From: Theristus sp. LFF4_11
Taxonomy: Eukaryota; Nematoda; Chromadorea; Monhysterida; Xyalidae
Assembly (NCBI GenBank): GCA_030248135.1
Contig: JASANC010001197.1
Span: 1-64,000 of the forward strand
Length of the DNA stretch: 64,000 bases
Reading direction: 5' to 3'
In this document: piece by piece, positions 19,476-27,832 of the stretch
Position numbering within the stretch: the first letter of the stretch is position 1
How the letters are laid out: each line of letters begins with the position of its first letter
Program-made: the position numbers and the translations under genes
Notes under the pieces: generated by a model
What the model was told of the DNA's origin: nothing
Seen by the model: only the letters and a program-made list of their open reading frames with translations
Databases searched by the model: none

Positions 19476-20946
19476 GAAGAATCTTTCGGCTGAATGAATC
19501 TTTTCCGGTGTGTTCTCCCGTTCTCGTGAAAGAGCATGTCATTGTGATAAACAGCTATAACTGCGAACAGTGCGATTCACAAATATGTCCAATTTCGATA
19601 TTGATTTGCAACTATTTTTGTGCAGCAATCTTTGCAAACAGCAAGCTATCCATCCCATTTTATGGTTTTATGGCCCTATGCGCGTAATATTTATTGCCGT
19701 TCTTCCCAATTCAAGTATTTATTCCCGATTTCAATTGGCCGTGATAGTGATCAGTTTTGTTGAGATCTGATGTGCATTGTCCATTTGGGTTTGTGTTTCG
19801 TTTTTTCTCATCTCACACCACGGACCGTTTGCTTTTCCGCATTCACCACCAACAGTGTCCCGTTGTCGTTGTTCGATACTCATTCATGTGATACTGATGA
19901 CTATGCTTTGTATCCGGTGGATTCCGATTACTTTTTTTGAACCAGCGTTTTTCAATTCTACAAAATCAATTAGTGTTGGTTGTGTATGCCCTATCTCTTT
20001 GCTGTTTCACTCCAGTCTCTCCTTTTCGGTTTCTGATTAATTGATACAATCATCCATCCATTCAATTTTTTCGAGTCGTCTGTCTGATTCATTTGGACTC
20101 CATTTATATTATTATCAGAATGCCACTTACTTGTCACACAAGTTTTTGAATAACATTTGGGGTAAAGGTATGAACGGAAACAATGTGCAATGTTCTGAGA
20201 ACAGAAACTGTTGGAACAATTGGACTGACAATAAGCTGTGATGTCACTGACATGTTTTCCAACTAAAGGGGCATTCATGAAGCAGTACTTAGTGACCGCG
20301 TAGCGATGTTTTAATACACAGCTACGCGTCACTAAATATTGCTTCATGAATGCGCCTTATGACCATTGTACAGACTGGCTTACTTTTACTCTGTTTTCAC
20401 AAAGTGATTTTGTTTCCATGAGACAAGTTTGAATTGTCATGTATACTAGTCTCTATCTCCATTGCTTCAATATGCGGTTACAATTTTTTTCTGTCGCACG
20501 ATATTTTGTGAAACAAAATGCACCGATCAATGGCAGGGATCAAACACACGAGCTATCTACGATTGATGTGTTTCTTTAGTTGCTGTGCTTTCAACTGATG
20601 ATAAATAAATACGGTGTCGTTATCGCTGATGCTGTAATTCGTTCACAACATATTATAGAAAGTGCAATTAGCTTGGAAGCGGGAAACAGAAACAATTATA
20701 ACTGAAAAAAACACTGTTTAGAACTTGCGCTCAGGCTGCAGGAAAGAAAGATTTTTCAGTGAGGTACACTTTTCACAATGGCAGGCAACAAGGAACAATT
20801 TGCAAGTAATCCATCAGTACAGTAATCGGATGCGTGCTCTGAATTACATGAATGCGCTCGCAGATAAACGAAACTTCGCACATTTTATCAGGGCTGTGCT
20901 ATCAATAAGATGAATTGGAATTTCGATGTTCAAAAACCGAGATCTG
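19476..20946. other. Intergenic region between SMSr and the LIM gene
   Basis: Two genes converge here: SMSr ends at 19475 and the LIM gene, on the minus strand, ends at 20947. Apart from a short inverted-repeat element at 20268-20357 I see no exon. A plus-strand AATAAA lies near 20603. Confidence 0.4.
20268..20357. mobile_element. MITE, family A, copy 1
   Basis: About 90 bases that fold on themselves: GGCATTCATGAAGCAGTACT on the left and GCTTCATGAATGC on the right are inverted, with GACCGCGTAGC and GCTACGCGTC further in. A second copy lies at 52079-52176 and shares the same ends and internal arms. Confidence 0.75.
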
Positions 20947-21870
20947 TCACAGCCGTTGTCCAGTGCTCAAATGTTTGTCCAAGCGTTTCGCCCAATGGCA
21001 ATCGAGATCGTACGGCTCACCGTCAACAACGTAAAACTCGCCTGCAATCGGACTCGTGTCTGATTTCTGCGATTTATTTGTTTCATTTTTGATTTTTTTC
21101 GTCTAGCATTGGGCTTCTCGAACTGGTGATTCCAACAGCAGAAGCTGACCAACCGGGCAGCAGCTGGCGGCACGCCGTGCACCGAAAGCACTGATTGTGC
21201 CAGTCCTCGTCCATGGCACGCATGCACGTGTCATCCACGATCGCCCGTTTGCAGCCGGCACACTTTGCACTGAACTTCTCCGTGTGACACGGCTGGCAGT
21301 ATGCCTCACCGTTGTGCTCCTCAAATCGAGAATTCTAGAAATTCCACCTGAGAACCACTCAAATGATAAAAGCATTCTTAAATCGGTGAAACTAGGGCTG
21401 TTAAAAACTGCCGAGATCGCAACAAATACATGTCCACCTTGTAGTTCTGATTGACCATGAAACGTATTGGCACTTCACATTTTGCGCAAATGAAGTGGTC
21501 CGGATGCCAGAGTCTGTTCATGGCAACGGTGGCGTCGCCAATGATGGCGCCATTGCACCCGGCGCAGCGGCCACGATCCTTGGCGCTACGTGGCGCCGCG
21601 GTGCTCGCTGTGATGTGCGTGATCGCATTTCAATCTTGAAACTTGTTGAGCTGATGAAAACTGTTGAAAAACACACTCCAGCGAGTTGGTGTATCCGTTT
21701 GCTGTGAGATCCCGTTCCCCACGAAGCAAGCAGGCAAGTTCCCAAAGCAACCATGTTTTACCGCGTTTTGTCGTTGGCCTCGGACTGTTGGTGGTGCTCT
21801 GTTTCGCGACCATCGGCTGCGCAACATCCGCTGACATTTGGTTGCTTTTCCCTTTCGTTGGCGCTGACAT
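20947..21870 (-). CDS. Two-LIM-domain protein
   Basis: Small adaptor of about 185 residues. Four exons keep phase: 21762-21870 (start MSAPTKGKSNQ), 21438-21607, 21154-21334 and 20947-21041 (stop at 20947-20949). LIM1 is read from CAGCNGAIIGD, WHPDHFICAKC and YCQPCH; LIM2 from CAGCKRAIVDD, WHNQCFRCTAC and PYDLDCH. The zinc-ligand spacing fits the family except that the seventh ligand of LIM2 is Asp where Cys is usual. The sequence resembles the tandem LIM modules of paxillin/PINCH-like proteins, which bind partners at actin and adhesion sites, but there is no leader domain to name it. The first 36 residues are Ser/Thr/Lys-rich and probably disordered. Confidence 0.87.
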
Positions 21871-23110
21871 GATCAAGAAATAATTAACAATCCACTTTCG
21901 AATGGGCGCAGAAATCTTCAGTACAACATCCCAGACAGGAATTGCTGTTGCGTTATTTCGGACTCCGCGTTTGCGAACAAATGCGTCCGAATATTTTGTT
22001 CATTACTGACAGGGACAGGACTGCAAATTGGCCGTTTTGCCCACGCAGACGTGCACATAAGCAACTGTTTGCCATGCAACCACCATTGTTGCTATGCGCT
22101 GCTACGCCAGTAACAGCAACACACATACGGAATGGCCGAGTAAACATGGCAGCTTTTTTCAGGGTGCAAGATGCGCGCAAAATTTGAGTGAAAGATACCG
22201 TAGATGAAAGTAAAACCGCTTCGGAAATCCAATTGTGTGCCAAATTCAACTTGTTTTTTTTAATCTAACTGATTATTCGTGCTATTCTGTCCATTGTTTC
22301 TCTTTTGCACACATGATTGGGAATTATGTTGGTATTTTTGAAAAAGACAACTCCTAGTCTGCGACTGATCCCGCCTTGACGGACTGCCTTATTTATTCGG
22401 CCCTACTGTATACTCATGCTGTATTCACTGAAATCCATTTCTAGTTTACTACTGATATTTTCTTCCACTCTCTTTCTGGTAAAATGTTTTAATTTTTCGG
22501 GTTTCGGACAAGATAACAGCGTTCGGTTTAGCCCAAGTTTGCTTTTATCAACACAGCTTGTAGACAAATTCAAACAACAACGGTGAACTTTTGACTCACC
22601 AACAATGTTTGAATTACATTTTAGTTGTACGTAAATTGAAACAGCGCGATTGGAGTGTGGTACCATGGTGGTGTTCATAACGTGGTTTTTTAACTTGATA
22701 TTTGAAGATTGCTTGTGATCATTTTTTCTTTAAGAGACGTTGCTATCGATATGTTTATTTAGGTTTAGGCTGCTTGCGGAATGCATATGTAGGTTGAAAT
22801 CTAAAAGCACTAAAGAAATACAACATTCTGAAAAACCGACCTTTTCACAAAAAAATCTAGTTTTTAAGACAGTAAAATGGTAAGCACAATTGGGACGGGT
22901 AGAACAGAAAATACGCAGATCAATAAATAGACGGCGGCACACATTTCAGTAGCGTCTGCCACGATTGTGCGATTCATCACTGCGCGACGTGCCTCTGCGG
23001 CGCAGCTGAGTTCGACTGGACGACTGAAAACACAGGAACTCTGCGAAGTGGATGGTTTTGAGCAATTGACAAATCCACTGCTAGCGTGTCTTCTGCATTA
23101 AGCGATTGTA
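21871..23110. other. Intergenic region between the LIM gene and the doublecortin gene
   Basis: Upstream of the LIM gene and downstream of the doublecortin gene, both on the minus strand. Scattered short frames without splice signals; no RNA gene or repeat recognised. Confidence 0.35.
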
Positions 23111-26100
23111 CTACCAATGAGTGCGTGAGCCCGTTCCGTTCATCAACTTAGCCAATCTACTGCTTGCACAGTTTGTGTCTTTGCTCTGTCTGCTTGCCTT
23201 CGAGTGGCGCGACGTGAAGTCGCTGCGAGCGCTGTGCTTGCTGTACAGGCGTCTCGTCCGCCTGGTCGCTTTCGTCCGATCGCTGTCCACCGTCGACCTT
23301 CGACTCTTTGGACTGCCCGTGCGGGCGCCCCTCGTGCTCTTGTAGCTCTGATTCCAGCTGCTCGGGTGATGCGAGTTGCTCTCGCTACTGACGCTGCGTC
23401 TACGGCGACTCCTGCGCGTTCAGCAGGTTTCTTGGCTAATTTCTGGAGTTTTTTTTCAGTTTATTATTTCAGTTTAATCAGTTCGTGTAAAACTGCAGCT
23501 GCAACGCTAAAGAAGACTGGCGCAAAAACCGGCACCAAGAACAAGATAAAACATTTTTGCATTTCTCACAGTTTGTTCAGTGTTTGTCACCAATTCGAAG
23601 AGCCCTGCGGACAGCGCTCCATTGGCCCGCTCACTAACCGTGTCGATTTTCGACTGCCCCGTGGCGTGCTGCTTCTGTTGCGCCGTCGACTGCCACTGCT
23701 GCTGCTGCGTGAGCTCGACTTTGAACTGCCACTGCCGCGACGCCAGAAGCGCCTGTGGTTTGTGAAGAACAATAGTAACAAGTAAACATTTTATTGACGA
23801 CTTTGCCTTGGGTTTTCTATCCATTACGAGGGTCAACAGTATCAGACTGCATGCACACCAGAAATTGCTGACGCATAAAAAGGCATTTAGCATTTACCAG
23901 CCACCGCCGCTGCTGCTTCGACTGCCACTGCGACTGGACGATTTGCTGCGGCGTGTGGACGCACTCGCCAAGTGCCTTCGACTTTGCCGTTTTCCAGTGT
24001 TTGATGGGCTGCAATGTGAACACACTGTTGATAGCTGGTCAACTGGCTGCATTTGTACCTGGGCGCCATGCAATCGTTGATACATTGGCCGACTGGGAAA
24101 GATGCGCAGCAAATCAGTGCTCGCTAAGTTTGACTGAGAAAACGTTTGCCACAAAAGTTGGAGAATCAATTTAAATGTAGCGGTTCTAGTAAACGCGTGT
24201 GCGACTAAAGTTTCTTACGTACGTCACGAACTCAATTTTAGTACCAACTTTAGTCGCACACGCTTCAGTTTTCAAGTTCGTTTCAGTGGCATAAGCAGCA
24301 ATGTTACGTGTATGTCACTCAAAAAAATCGGACAATCTGACCAAGTTGTAACTTTCTTGGTCAGTTGTTTTTCAGGAGTAATGTTTTTTAAAGAAATCGA
24401 TTTCTTGCACCTGCGCGTGCGCCGTGTGCCGGAGGACGCCCGACTGCTGCTGCCACGACTGAATCTGCGTGACGATCGCGACGGCGAACGGGAGCGGCGT
24501 GCCGGCGACGAATGGCGGCTGCTGCGCGACGTCTCCACACCGGAGTCGGAACGGTGGTGGTGGTGGTGGCGTGGTTGGCTGCAGCGCAAATCACATTCAA
24601 CTACGTCGTTTAGAAAAAAGGCATTACTCAGTGGAATTGGAATTTGTTGAAATTAGCAGTGTGACCTCCAGTGCATGGCTTTTACAGCCGGGTCGCACCT
24701 TGAGTTTGAGTGTTTGCTGTCGGCTGAGTGCGAACGCCGAACTTGCAGGTGCTGCTGCTGCTGGTGACTGCCAGCGGCTGGCGGCAGACCGCCTCCGGCA
24801 CCGCGGCTCGACCGAGCACTCGGTGGATTGTTGGCATTTTGGCTGGAAATTGGTGCGATTTGAATGGAGTTTGCACTCAACAAATCACTTGTAGATTTCA
24901 TTGTTTTCATTCAGCCACACTACATTGCAACTGACCTAGTGTCGAGCATTTCGTTTTTCAGAATGTACCAGGCAGGTTTGAATTTTTGTGTTGCCGGCAC
25001 GACCACGTACGAGCCGCGGTTGATCAACTCGGATGCGTGCATGATTTCATAGCCGTCCATTGTGGTCAACCTGATTAGCAAAAGCTTCTTTAAAGAAAGA
25101 AAAATCATAGTAATCGAATCGACTATTTTCATTTGGCTTTCTAAGTATTCAAAGCATAAACGACCGACTTTTGTCCGTTAACGCCGAATGGCTTTGACAT
25201 TTGCTCAACGATCCACGGCATGCCACGTTCCAGCTGTTTCGGGGCAAACGAAAACGTAGACGACTCCAGACCGTTCCCATTTTGGAAACCACTGCGAAAA
25301 AAGAAATCGAATGCAGATCTTTTTATCAAGCTCGATTTTTGATTGCAAAACTTAAAAAAGTGATTTACTAGACAATCATGTTGGTCATCGCGTATGAGCG
25401 CTGGTCAATCGGTGGCAGCCCGTCGGGGCGCGGGCTTCGCGGTGTGCGACTGCCGTGATTCTTCCTTTGACCGCGTTTCTTTGCCAAGCTGGAACAGAGC
25501 AACGCAACGGCTATTCATTGTTATATCTTGAACTTGATTTCGAGCACAAGACGTCATTTGTGTTTGACAGGTTCGAACAAATATGGCTATTACACCTTTG
25601 CGGTCCGTTCTTCCCCTCGTACATCGTCTCGCCAACGACTATGTACGTCTGCTCCGGTGAGAGATCGCGAAGGTCCTTGATGCGCTTCAGTCGTTTCTGC
25701 CGGTAGACCGCTTGAATCTCGCCGCCATCCAGCGGTTGCACGGTGTTGCGGAGATCTTTCAGGAACGCCTCCCACGTTTTCGTGATCCGATTGCGATAGA
25801 AATATTGCTTGGGGCTGCAAAATACGAATTGCTTGGCAAACAGGCTGGTATCAGAAACTAATTAATTGCGAAATCAATTAATCAGAAGTGAATTAAGAGA
25901 TCGCACATAGCAAGCCAAGAACAAAGAGTCGCATACAAAAGTCATACCGACTTCGGTCGGACAAATGGAATTCTTTGAAACTCGTTCTGTCTAATCGGGG
26001 GAGTCGCGCGAAATCTTCAGAACAACGTTTCAGGTGTTGAAATTGAGAAACCAAAAGACTGTCGGCGCGTACACAAACTCCGGGTCGCCGCTACGTGTCA

Positions 26101-26979
26101 CGTAAATCTTCTTCGCGTCGATCGTTGACTCCCAGTCTTTGTAGCGTGCACCGACTGACGCGTTGATGTCGCGATTCATGTCCAGATAACTGTAACGGTT
26201 GACGACAAAACATATGAACTGTTGGAAAAGAAGAAAAAAGTGTTGAGAAAAATTGTAGAACACGATCCGAAAACCTGGTATACGGTCGAATGCTCTCAGC
26301 ACTGCCTGCCCTCGAGGTGCGACTGGTGTCTGCCGAGCCGGCTGCACGGCGTGCGCGAGGCGACAAACGACTGCGGTTCTGTAATAAAACGATACAGCTT
26401 GACCATGGAACGCAATTCGCAGCAACGGCAGTGCAATTTGACGACGGGAAACACCACTGAAACAACAACTTTGTTCACTGACACACCACTACCCACTTTG
26501 CTGTTGTTTTCCACTCGCTTTGCGACTCGATTGTTGTCGCGTGCGGAGTCGTTGCGCGTGTGCTTCCGGCGTGGCTTGTTGTATTTGTCGTTGTCATTCT
26601 CGCCATAGTCACCTCTGCGGAACGCTTCGCGGCCGACGCAGACCAGTTCATTTTCGTCCAGTCTGCCGAGTTGATCGAGTGAATAGATCTTCTTGCCGTC
26701 CACCGTGTACAATGAGCGAACCTACAGACGGTTTGGAGAATGTTCAATATTTGGACAACATTATTCTGGTAAGCGTTTGATTTCCGTGTCTTTTTTGTTT
26801 TTCACGGTCAAGTAAACGTTCTATGTTCTAAGCGAGTCGACCTGTCCTCCGACGAGTCGTTCACAGTCCGCCAGCAGCTGCTCCATGCTTGTCACTCGGT
26901 TAGCGTTGTACGCGTAAGCAATCGGCCGCTTCGATGGTTCACCATTGCGATACAAACGCACACGTTTCACGGGCGCCAT
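23111..26979 (-). CDS. Doublecortin-family protein: three DCX modules plus a long Ser/Arg-rich tail
   Basis: DCX modules bind microtubules. Start at 26979 (MAPVKRVRLYRNG). Exons: 26842-26979, about 26497-26721, 26275-26378, 26073-26189, 25596-25814, 25369-25488, 25169-25291, 24936-25070, 24699-24887, 24411-24578, 23898-24009, 23639-23752 and 23111-23411; phases agree wherever both ends were set. Module 1: KRVRLYRNGEP, SMEQLLADCERLV, VRSLYTVDGKKIYSLDQL. Module 2: YRNRITKTWEAFL, LDGGEIQAVYRQK, LSPEQTYIVVGE. Module 3: MIVYGFQNGNGLES, then LTTMDGYEIMHASELINRG and SYVVVPATQKFKPAWYIL. Modules 2 and 3 are atypical at their edges. The last four exons (about 230 residues) encode an SR-protein-like tail with RRSRSPSRSSRRFSRG, a His run and many RS/SR pairs, ending at TAG 23111-23113. 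No kinase domain. The exon 2 donor is uncertain by a few codons. Confidence 0.8.
24195..24263. repeat. Perfect 18-bp inverted repeat (hairpin) in a doublecortin intron
   Basis: GCGTGTGCGACTAAAGTT at 24195-24212 and its exact complement at 24246-24263, separated by 33 bases. Probably a tiny MITE or a structured intronic element. No second copy was noticed. Confidence 0.8.
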
Positions 26980-27832
26980 TTTGGAATCTGTTCTCACTCG
27001 ATATTCACTTGGAATAAACTTTTTACACGATCTTCTTGTTTGGCTTTATGCAACAATGGCAGTTTGCAGTTTATGCTTGTTGCTTGATACAACTGGGTAG
27101 TACCAATGTTCATGTGCTGTTTGCTGTTCTCTGCATTGCGTGCATCAGATCAACTTTTGCAACGATTGCGATGCTAGGATACGCGTGTCAACAAACGCCC
27201 CGATCACATGCATATGCCCCTGGTGCTGGAAAACTTGTGCTTGCGTGTGCGTGTTTGCGGTTGCCAAGAGTGAAATAAACCAGCGTCAGCAGTGAGCCAT
27301 ATTATTTTTGCTGTTCATGTCATGGGGGCTTAGTTACAGCGCAGCCTGATTCGGCCAAATAAAGCGCATCCACGTGACAGAAATTCAAAAACAAAACTGG
27401 TCGCTGTTTTAGTCATCAGCATAATGCTCACATGCATGATGCGTGTCGTGGCGTGATGAACGTTCTGATGTCAAGTGGTTTTCACCGACTTGCCTGTTTT
27501 GTTTTTTTACAACAGCCAACAAAAAACGTTCTGTTGGCAGTTTATTTGCGTCATCTACTGACAAACACTAATACTGCAACTTTGTAAAAATGAAAGGGTT
27601 TACATCAAACAACAAATCAAAGCAAAAAACAGCAACCCGCTGATTTCAAAATCAACGCTTCCTACCAAAACACTGTTATAATCGTTGACTTTAGGCGAAT
27701 ACACAAGTAAATTTCACAATTTTCAACAAACGTTCTTGACTACATAAACTGGTTGTCGCGTCGAAACGATATTTTTGTACAACTGTTTGTTCCAAAAATC
27801 ATTTCAGTGTATAAGACTGTTACCAGTGAAAC
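26980..27832. other. Divergent promoter region between the doublecortin and four-TM genes
   Basis: The two genes start 853 bases apart and are transcribed away from each other. No exon or repeat is recognised. The DNA is AT-rich next to the four-TM start. Confidence 0.4.

What the first reader, a model, noticed from the sequence alone, without database searches (positions are those of the whole stretch)
23111..26979. Doublecortin modules fused to an SR-protein-like tail
Seen: three DCX-type modules followed, through phase-matched exons, by about 230 residues of RS/SR-rich sequence with a His run. Known: DCX proteins bind microtubules, while RS tails are phosphorylated by SRPK/CLK kinases and typical of splicing factors. 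Inference: a microtubule binder controlled by RS-domain phosphorylation. I know of no standard DCX protein with this layout.
Basis: partly seen in the sequence, partly recalled or inferred. Interest (0 to 1): 0.75.

Follow-up and report, generated by a model that had tools for sequence, protein, structure and literature searches.

The report
Nematode doublecortin protein with serine-arginine tail
A roundworm gene appears to encode a microtubule-binding doublecortin protein that ends in a long, strongly basic serine- and arginine-rich tail; this may let kinases that phosphorylate such tails switch its grip on microtubules, but no transcript or experiment has yet tested it.

Summary
A 13-exon minus-strand model (26979-23111, all 12 introns GT-AG) reads open for 672 residues: two clear DCX modules, a third divergent one, then a 279-residue tail (82 Ser, 55 Arg, net charge +59). 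Module 3 alone scores below Pfam's cut-off but is conserved in two three-module paralogs and aligns to the other modules by profile. The genome is a nematode's, with DCX matches on 12 contigs. Serine/arginine-rich sequence also accompanies DCX modules at C56 (tail with SRSRSRSRS) and C3271 (upstream, same open frame). The tail is RS-domain-like in composition, but RS/SR pairs are no commoner than composition predicts, there is one RSRS run and no RRM. The genome encodes an SRPK. Best reading: a microtubule-associated protein whose basic tail adds phosphorylation-tunable affinity, an arginine-rich counterpart of doublecortin's Ser/Pro-rich tail. Not shown: one transcript, microtubule binding, or the kinase. 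Internal starts and ends remain possible. New variant of a known kind.

The parts
26842..26979 (-). exon 1, start codon and first half of DCX module 1
26497..26721 (-). exon 2, second half of DCX module 1 and basic linker
26275..26378 (-). exon 3, Arg/Ser-rich linker between modules 1 and 2
26073..26189 (-). exon 4, linker and first strand of DCX module 2
25596..25814 (-). exon 5, body of DCX module 2
25369..25488 (-). exon 6, basic linker and start of divergent DCX module 3
25169..25291 (-). exon 7, DCX module 3, first half
24936..25070 (-). exon 8, DCX module 3, second half
24699..24842 (-). exon 9, start of tail (NNPP also follows module 3 in paralog C117), Gln run
24411..24578 (-). exon 10, His run and the densest Arg/Ser stretch
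23898..24008 (-). exon 11, Arg/Ser-rich (acceptor may instead be 24092, in frame)
23639..23752 (-). exon 12, Arg/Ser-rich
23111..23411 (-). exon 13, Arg/Ser-rich C-terminus and stop codon
22949..23023 (-). possible alternative last exon with an RS-like peptide, joinable in frame; weak
22754..22759 (-). AATAAA downstream of the stop codon

Best explanation
The gene encodes a microtubule-associated protein of a three-DCX-module family found in this nematode. Modules 1 and 2 (and probably 3) dock on the microtubule wall; the presumably disordered, strongly basic Arg/Ser-rich tail adds electrostatic affinity for acidic tubulin and perhaps bundling or self-association; phosphorylation of its many serines, by SRPK/CLK or other basophilic kinases, lowers the charge and loosens the hold. 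Shown here: the open spliced frame, two significant DCX modules, the composition and charge of the tail, three-module paralogs, other DCX genes with Arg/Ser-rich sequence, and an SRPK gene in the genome. Inferred: single transcript, microtubule binding, disorder, phosphorylation and its effect.
For: Open 672-residue frame over 12 GT-AG introns with matching phases. DCX matches; module 1 resembles human DCX/DCLK domains of known structure. Tail charge +59, net charge per residue 0.21. NNPP follows module 3 also in paralog C117 (a four-residue match). No AATAAA/ATTAAA between exon 8 and exon 11. Similar pairing elsewhere: C56 tail with SRSRSRSRS, C3271 with RS sequence in the same open frame as the start of its DCX module. 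SRPK exons on C2492, three stretches 55-69% identical to the SRPK1 query; best PDB relatives of one of them are SRPK2 and SRPK1. Published: DCX has a disordered C-terminal Ser/Pro-rich domain, and constructs of its second module stimulated microtubule growth only with that domain (PMC7726794, passages); hyperphosphorylation within the DC domains abolishes microtubule binding of a DCLK1 form (PMC8352597, passages; this is not a tail effect); dephosphorylated SRSF2 associates with microtubules (PMC8569591, passages).
Against: No RNA evidence. The tail finds no relative elsewhere in the genome at E 0.01 (low-complexity sequence is hard to find), so it is not shown to be conserved. RS/SR pairs are at composition level. 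In-frame ATGs exist in intron 8 (24910) and intron 10 (24085, seven bases after acceptor 24092), so internal starts are possible. AATAAA at 23795 and 23465 and ATTAAA at 23478 lie in introns 11 and 12, and the variant AATGAA at 24911 and 24902 in intron 8, so earlier ends are possible.
Confidence: 0.55

Rival explanations
1. The tail is an ordinary low-complexity basic tail, one of many forms of the variable disordered regions of DCX proteins; it adds non-specific charge and is not a regulated RS domain.
For: RS/SR pairs not above composition; no detectable relative in the genome; paralog models carry other tails: C2506 has an IQ-like segment, C117 ends without an RS stretch as far as modelled.
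Against: R+S reaches 70% over 50-60 residues across several exons with varied codons; similar sequence accompanies two other DCX genes.
Confidence: 0.25
2. The RS exons form a separate or overlapping transcript with its own start, for example from ATG 24910 in intron 8, or from ATG 24085 in intron 10 behind an acceptor (24092) that could serve trans-splicing.
For: In-frame ATGs at those places; acceptor 24092 ranks first for intron 10; variant polyadenylation hexamers AATGAA at 24911 and 24902 just after exon 8.
Against: Acceptor 24092 also joins exon 10 in frame; exons 9-13 hold a single Met, residue 270 of 279; no AATAAA/ATTAAA between exon 8 and exon 11, which is weak, since about 68% of 2000 shuffles of 24936-23111 have no AATAAA at all.
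Confidence: 0.12
3. The tail works in the nucleus or on RNA (speckle targeting, binding to SR proteins), so the protein links splicing factors and microtubules.
For: Composition of RS-domain proteins, R+S over 40% in 50 or more residues.
Against: No RRM or other RNA-binding family in the Pfam scan; few consecutive RS repeats.
Confidence: 0.08

Closest known systems
Doublecortin (DCX) and doublecortin-like kinases
   Same: Tandem DCX modules, flexible linkers, serine-rich C-terminal region; module 1 matches the solved human domains.
   Different: A third module, an Arg/Ser-rich rather than Ser/Pro-rich tail, no kinase domain in the model.
Three-module DCX paralogs C117 and C2506 (C701 matched in module 2 only) of the same genome
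   Same: Same module order; module 3 39 and 42% identical.
   Different: Other tails: IQ-like in C2506, none RS-rich in the C117 model.
SR and RS-domain proteins (SRSF family)
   Same: Arg/Ser-rich tail, candidate SRPK substrate.
   Different: No RRM; RS/SR pairs not enriched over composition.
Single-DCX genes C56 and C3271 of the same genome
   Same: DCX module (36.1 and 32.1 bits) with Arg/Ser-rich sequence.
   Different: One module in the model; in C3271 the RS part lies upstream of the module.
DCDC1-type proteins with several DCX-like domains (recalled)
   Same: More than two DCX-like domains; weak sub-threshold matches to Pfam DCDC1 models.
   Different: Matches below the curated cut-off, so membership is not supported.

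Membership tests
DCX domain family (PF03607) | At least one DCX module above the curated cut-off | tested here: met
   Modules 1 and 2 at 40.0 and 34.5 bits, cut-off 22
DCX domain family (PF03607) | Third module is a DCX domain | tested here: inconclusive
   15.3 bits, below cut-off; conserved in two paralogs, profile match probability 84%
DCX domain family (PF03607) | Binds microtubules | not testable with these tools
   needs experiment
SR proteins (definition quoted in PMC9456285) | One or two N-terminal RRMs | tested here: not met
   No RRM in the Pfam scan
SR proteins (definition quoted in PMC9456285) | RS domain of at least 50 residues with over 40% RS content | tested here: met
   R+S 63-70% in the best windows of 50-150 residues; counting only residues inside RS/SR pairs, 44% in the best 50, 42% in 60, 40% in 80, 35% in 100
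SR proteins (definition quoted in PMC9456285) | Consecutive RS or SR repeats | tested here: inconclusive
   One RSRS run only; pairs at composition level
Doublecortin-like kinases | Protein kinase domain after the DCX modules | tested here: not met
   No kinase in the Pfam scan of the model

The most novel reading that the evidence does not exclude
In this nematode lineage, Arg/Ser-rich regions have become attached to DCX modules more than once (window gene, C56, C3271), making a class of microtubule proteins whose grip is set directly by SRPK/CLK kinases: an RS domain used as a cytoskeletal switch rather than a splicing one.
Probability: 0.2. Interest if true: 0.7.

Novelty: new variant of a known kind. 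Interest (0 to 1): 0.42.

Why it matters
The 2006 survey of human and mouse found DCX proteins with one or two repeats, some with kinase domains (PMC1550402, passages). A three-module form with an Arg/Ser-rich tail would give SR-protein kinases a direct microtubule substrate. It also shows a nematode with DCX matches on 12 contigs, while a 2026 paper calls ZYG-8 the sole Doublecortin-family member when describing the C. elegans zygote (PMC13340844, passages) and the 2006 survey says single-repeat DCX proteins are expanded in nematodes.

Tried and rejected
Tail search of the own genome: only five places, all in this gene. PDB profile search with module 3: nothing significant. Paper searches: (20 of 56 papers listed; 5 of 5; 14 of 14; 18 of 18; 12 of 42) showed no title or abstract start naming a DCX protein with an RS tail; I read only listings and the passages cited, and most subscription papers are not held. 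Artefact by a simple DNA repeat was rejected. Control loci: six loci around cuticle-collagen hits (69,026 strand-bases) gave 3 segments at the looser limit, the best with 7 RS/SR pairs in 40 residues; the window gene reaches 12, C56 11, C3271 8. That control is small, and three segments outside the DCX reading frames also reach 8. Structure prediction was not tried, because a spliced protein is not contiguous in the DNA.

Full report
What is there. On the minus strand, 26979 to 23111, thirteen exons join into one open frame of 672 residues; introns 1-2 are phase 0 and introns 3-12 phase 2; all twelve are GT-AG. A splice search anchored on peptides of this model ranked the same junctions first for 11 of 12 introns; for intron 10 an acceptor at 24092 came first instead of 24008, and it too stays in frame.

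DCX modules. Pfam DCX matches at E 2.8e-22. Alone, modules 1 and 2 pass the cut-off of 22 bits (40.0 and 34.5); module 3 does not (15.3). Module 3 is nevertheless conserved: 39 and 42% identical to the matching stretch of paralogs C117 and C2506, and its profile aligns to the profile of the other modules with probability 84%, E 7.5e-6 for that one comparison. A PDB search with that profile gave nothing significant. Module 1 matches human DCX and DCLK structures. So: two certain modules, one probable divergent one.

The tail. After exon 8 come 279 residues, 82 Ser and 55 Arg, with 17 RS and 20 SR. In exons 10 to 13 the reading frame has 60, 56, 68 and 42% R+S, the other frames 8 to 24%; all six Arg codons and five of six Ser codons occur. 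The only tandem repeat found at 22900-27000 is the GGT run behind the His stretch. So the composition is kept at protein level and is not a DNA repeat. But the RS/SR pairs (37) match what the composition gives (shuffled mean 32.3, sd 4.5; 843 of 5000 shuffles at or above 37), and there is one RSRS run. Pair coverage reaches 44% in the best 50 residues and 35% in the best 100; 86 of 1000 shuffles reach 44% in 50. With charge +59 it is an RS-domain-like basic tail without the long alternating runs of textbook RS domains. No RRM was found, so by the definition quoted in PMC9456285 (passage) it is not an SR protein.

Is it one gene? Phases match throughout. Exons 9 to 13 contain one Met, residue 270 of the 279-residue tail. 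NNPP in exon 9 also follows module 3 in C117, a short match. Between exon 8 and exon 11 there is no AATAAA or ATTAAA, though the variant AATGAA occurs at 24911 and 24902; AATAAA occurs at 23795 and 23465 and ATTAAA at 23478, inside introns 11 and 12, and AATAAA at 22759 after the stop, so shorter-tailed isoforms are possible. In-frame ATGs in intron 8 (24910) and intron 10 (24085) keep an internal start possible. A further RS-like exon at 23023-22949 can be joined in frame. No RNA data were available.

The genome. 84 matches to the nematode cuticle collagen N-terminal family point to a nematode (the link of that family to nematodes is recalled); the species is not known. DCX matches: 14, on 12 contigs including this one. 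The DCX part finds relatives on C117, C2506 and C701. I fetched DNA around the matches on all 11 other contigs and tried models for five: C56, C117 and C2506 joined, C3271 and C568 only over their first two exons. The other six were scanned for RS-rich frames but not modelled. Arg/Ser-rich sequence on the strand of the DCX module appears in C56, where the last exon holds SRSRSRSRS (its last junction scores 8.9, lower than any first-ranked junction of the window gene); in C3271, where RS sequence and the DCX start share one open frame (the first Met of that frame lies after the RS part, so translation of that part is not proven); and in C568, downstream with IQ-like motifs, linkage not shown. 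In a scan of 417,910 strand-bases (this window and 17 fetched loci, mostly DCX loci) the densest 40-residue segment was this gene's (12 pairs), the second C56's (11), the third C3271's (8); four further segments also had 8 pairs, one of them C3271's own and three outside the DCX reading frames. Six collagen-locus controls (69,026 strand-bases) gave a best of 7. The control is small.

How it may work. DCX modules dock on microtubules; PMC7726794 (passages) reports a disordered C-terminal Ser/Pro-rich domain in DCX, needed for the second module to stimulate growth in their constructs. PMC8352597 (passages) reports that hyperphosphorylation within the DC domains abolishes microtubule binding of a DCLK1 form. 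PMC8569591 (passages) reports that dephosphorylated SRSF2 associates with microtubules and that SRPK inhibition raises its tubule-like structures. An SRPK gene is present on C2492, three stretches 55-69% identical to the SRPK1 query, best PDB relatives SRPK2 and SRPK1. PMC10952393 (passages) gives precedents of SRPK acting on a non-splicing protein, Bruchpilot. I therefore read the tail as a phosphorylation-tunable electrostatic anchor. The kinase could as well be another basophilic one: the tail holds 20 RxxS sites. All of this step is inference.

Verdict. Observation confirmed, interpretation partly supported. A new variant of a known kind, with moderate interest, raised by its recurrence in other DCX genes of the same genome and lowered by the lack of transcripts, orthologs and long RS repeats.

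Noticed in passing
G000 C2506 and C568 (L030, L042): DCX genes of this genome with IQ-like motifs (label recalled, not tested by a family scan): AATRIQAGARGYLQRKRIRD in the C2506 model, AATKIQAHYRGYATRK downstream of the C568 module; suggests calmodulin-type regulation in other DCX members.
   Followed up: partly
window 24195-24263: Perfect 18-base inverted repeat with a 33-base loop inside intron 10, the longest intron of the gene; perhaps a small mobile-element remnant.
   Followed up: no
window 20266-20358: 31-base inverted repeat, 90% complementary, 31 bases between the arms, perhaps a small mobile element.
   Followed up: no
window 21378-21629: LIM-domain exon of the neighbouring gene on the same strand (Pfam LIM, 39.6 bits).
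   Followed up: partly
L030, C2506 about 27360-26440: Long tandem array of a short unit, open in two frames, reading as repeated PIGEMPIAEL-like peptides between exons of the C2506 DCX gene.
   Followed up: no
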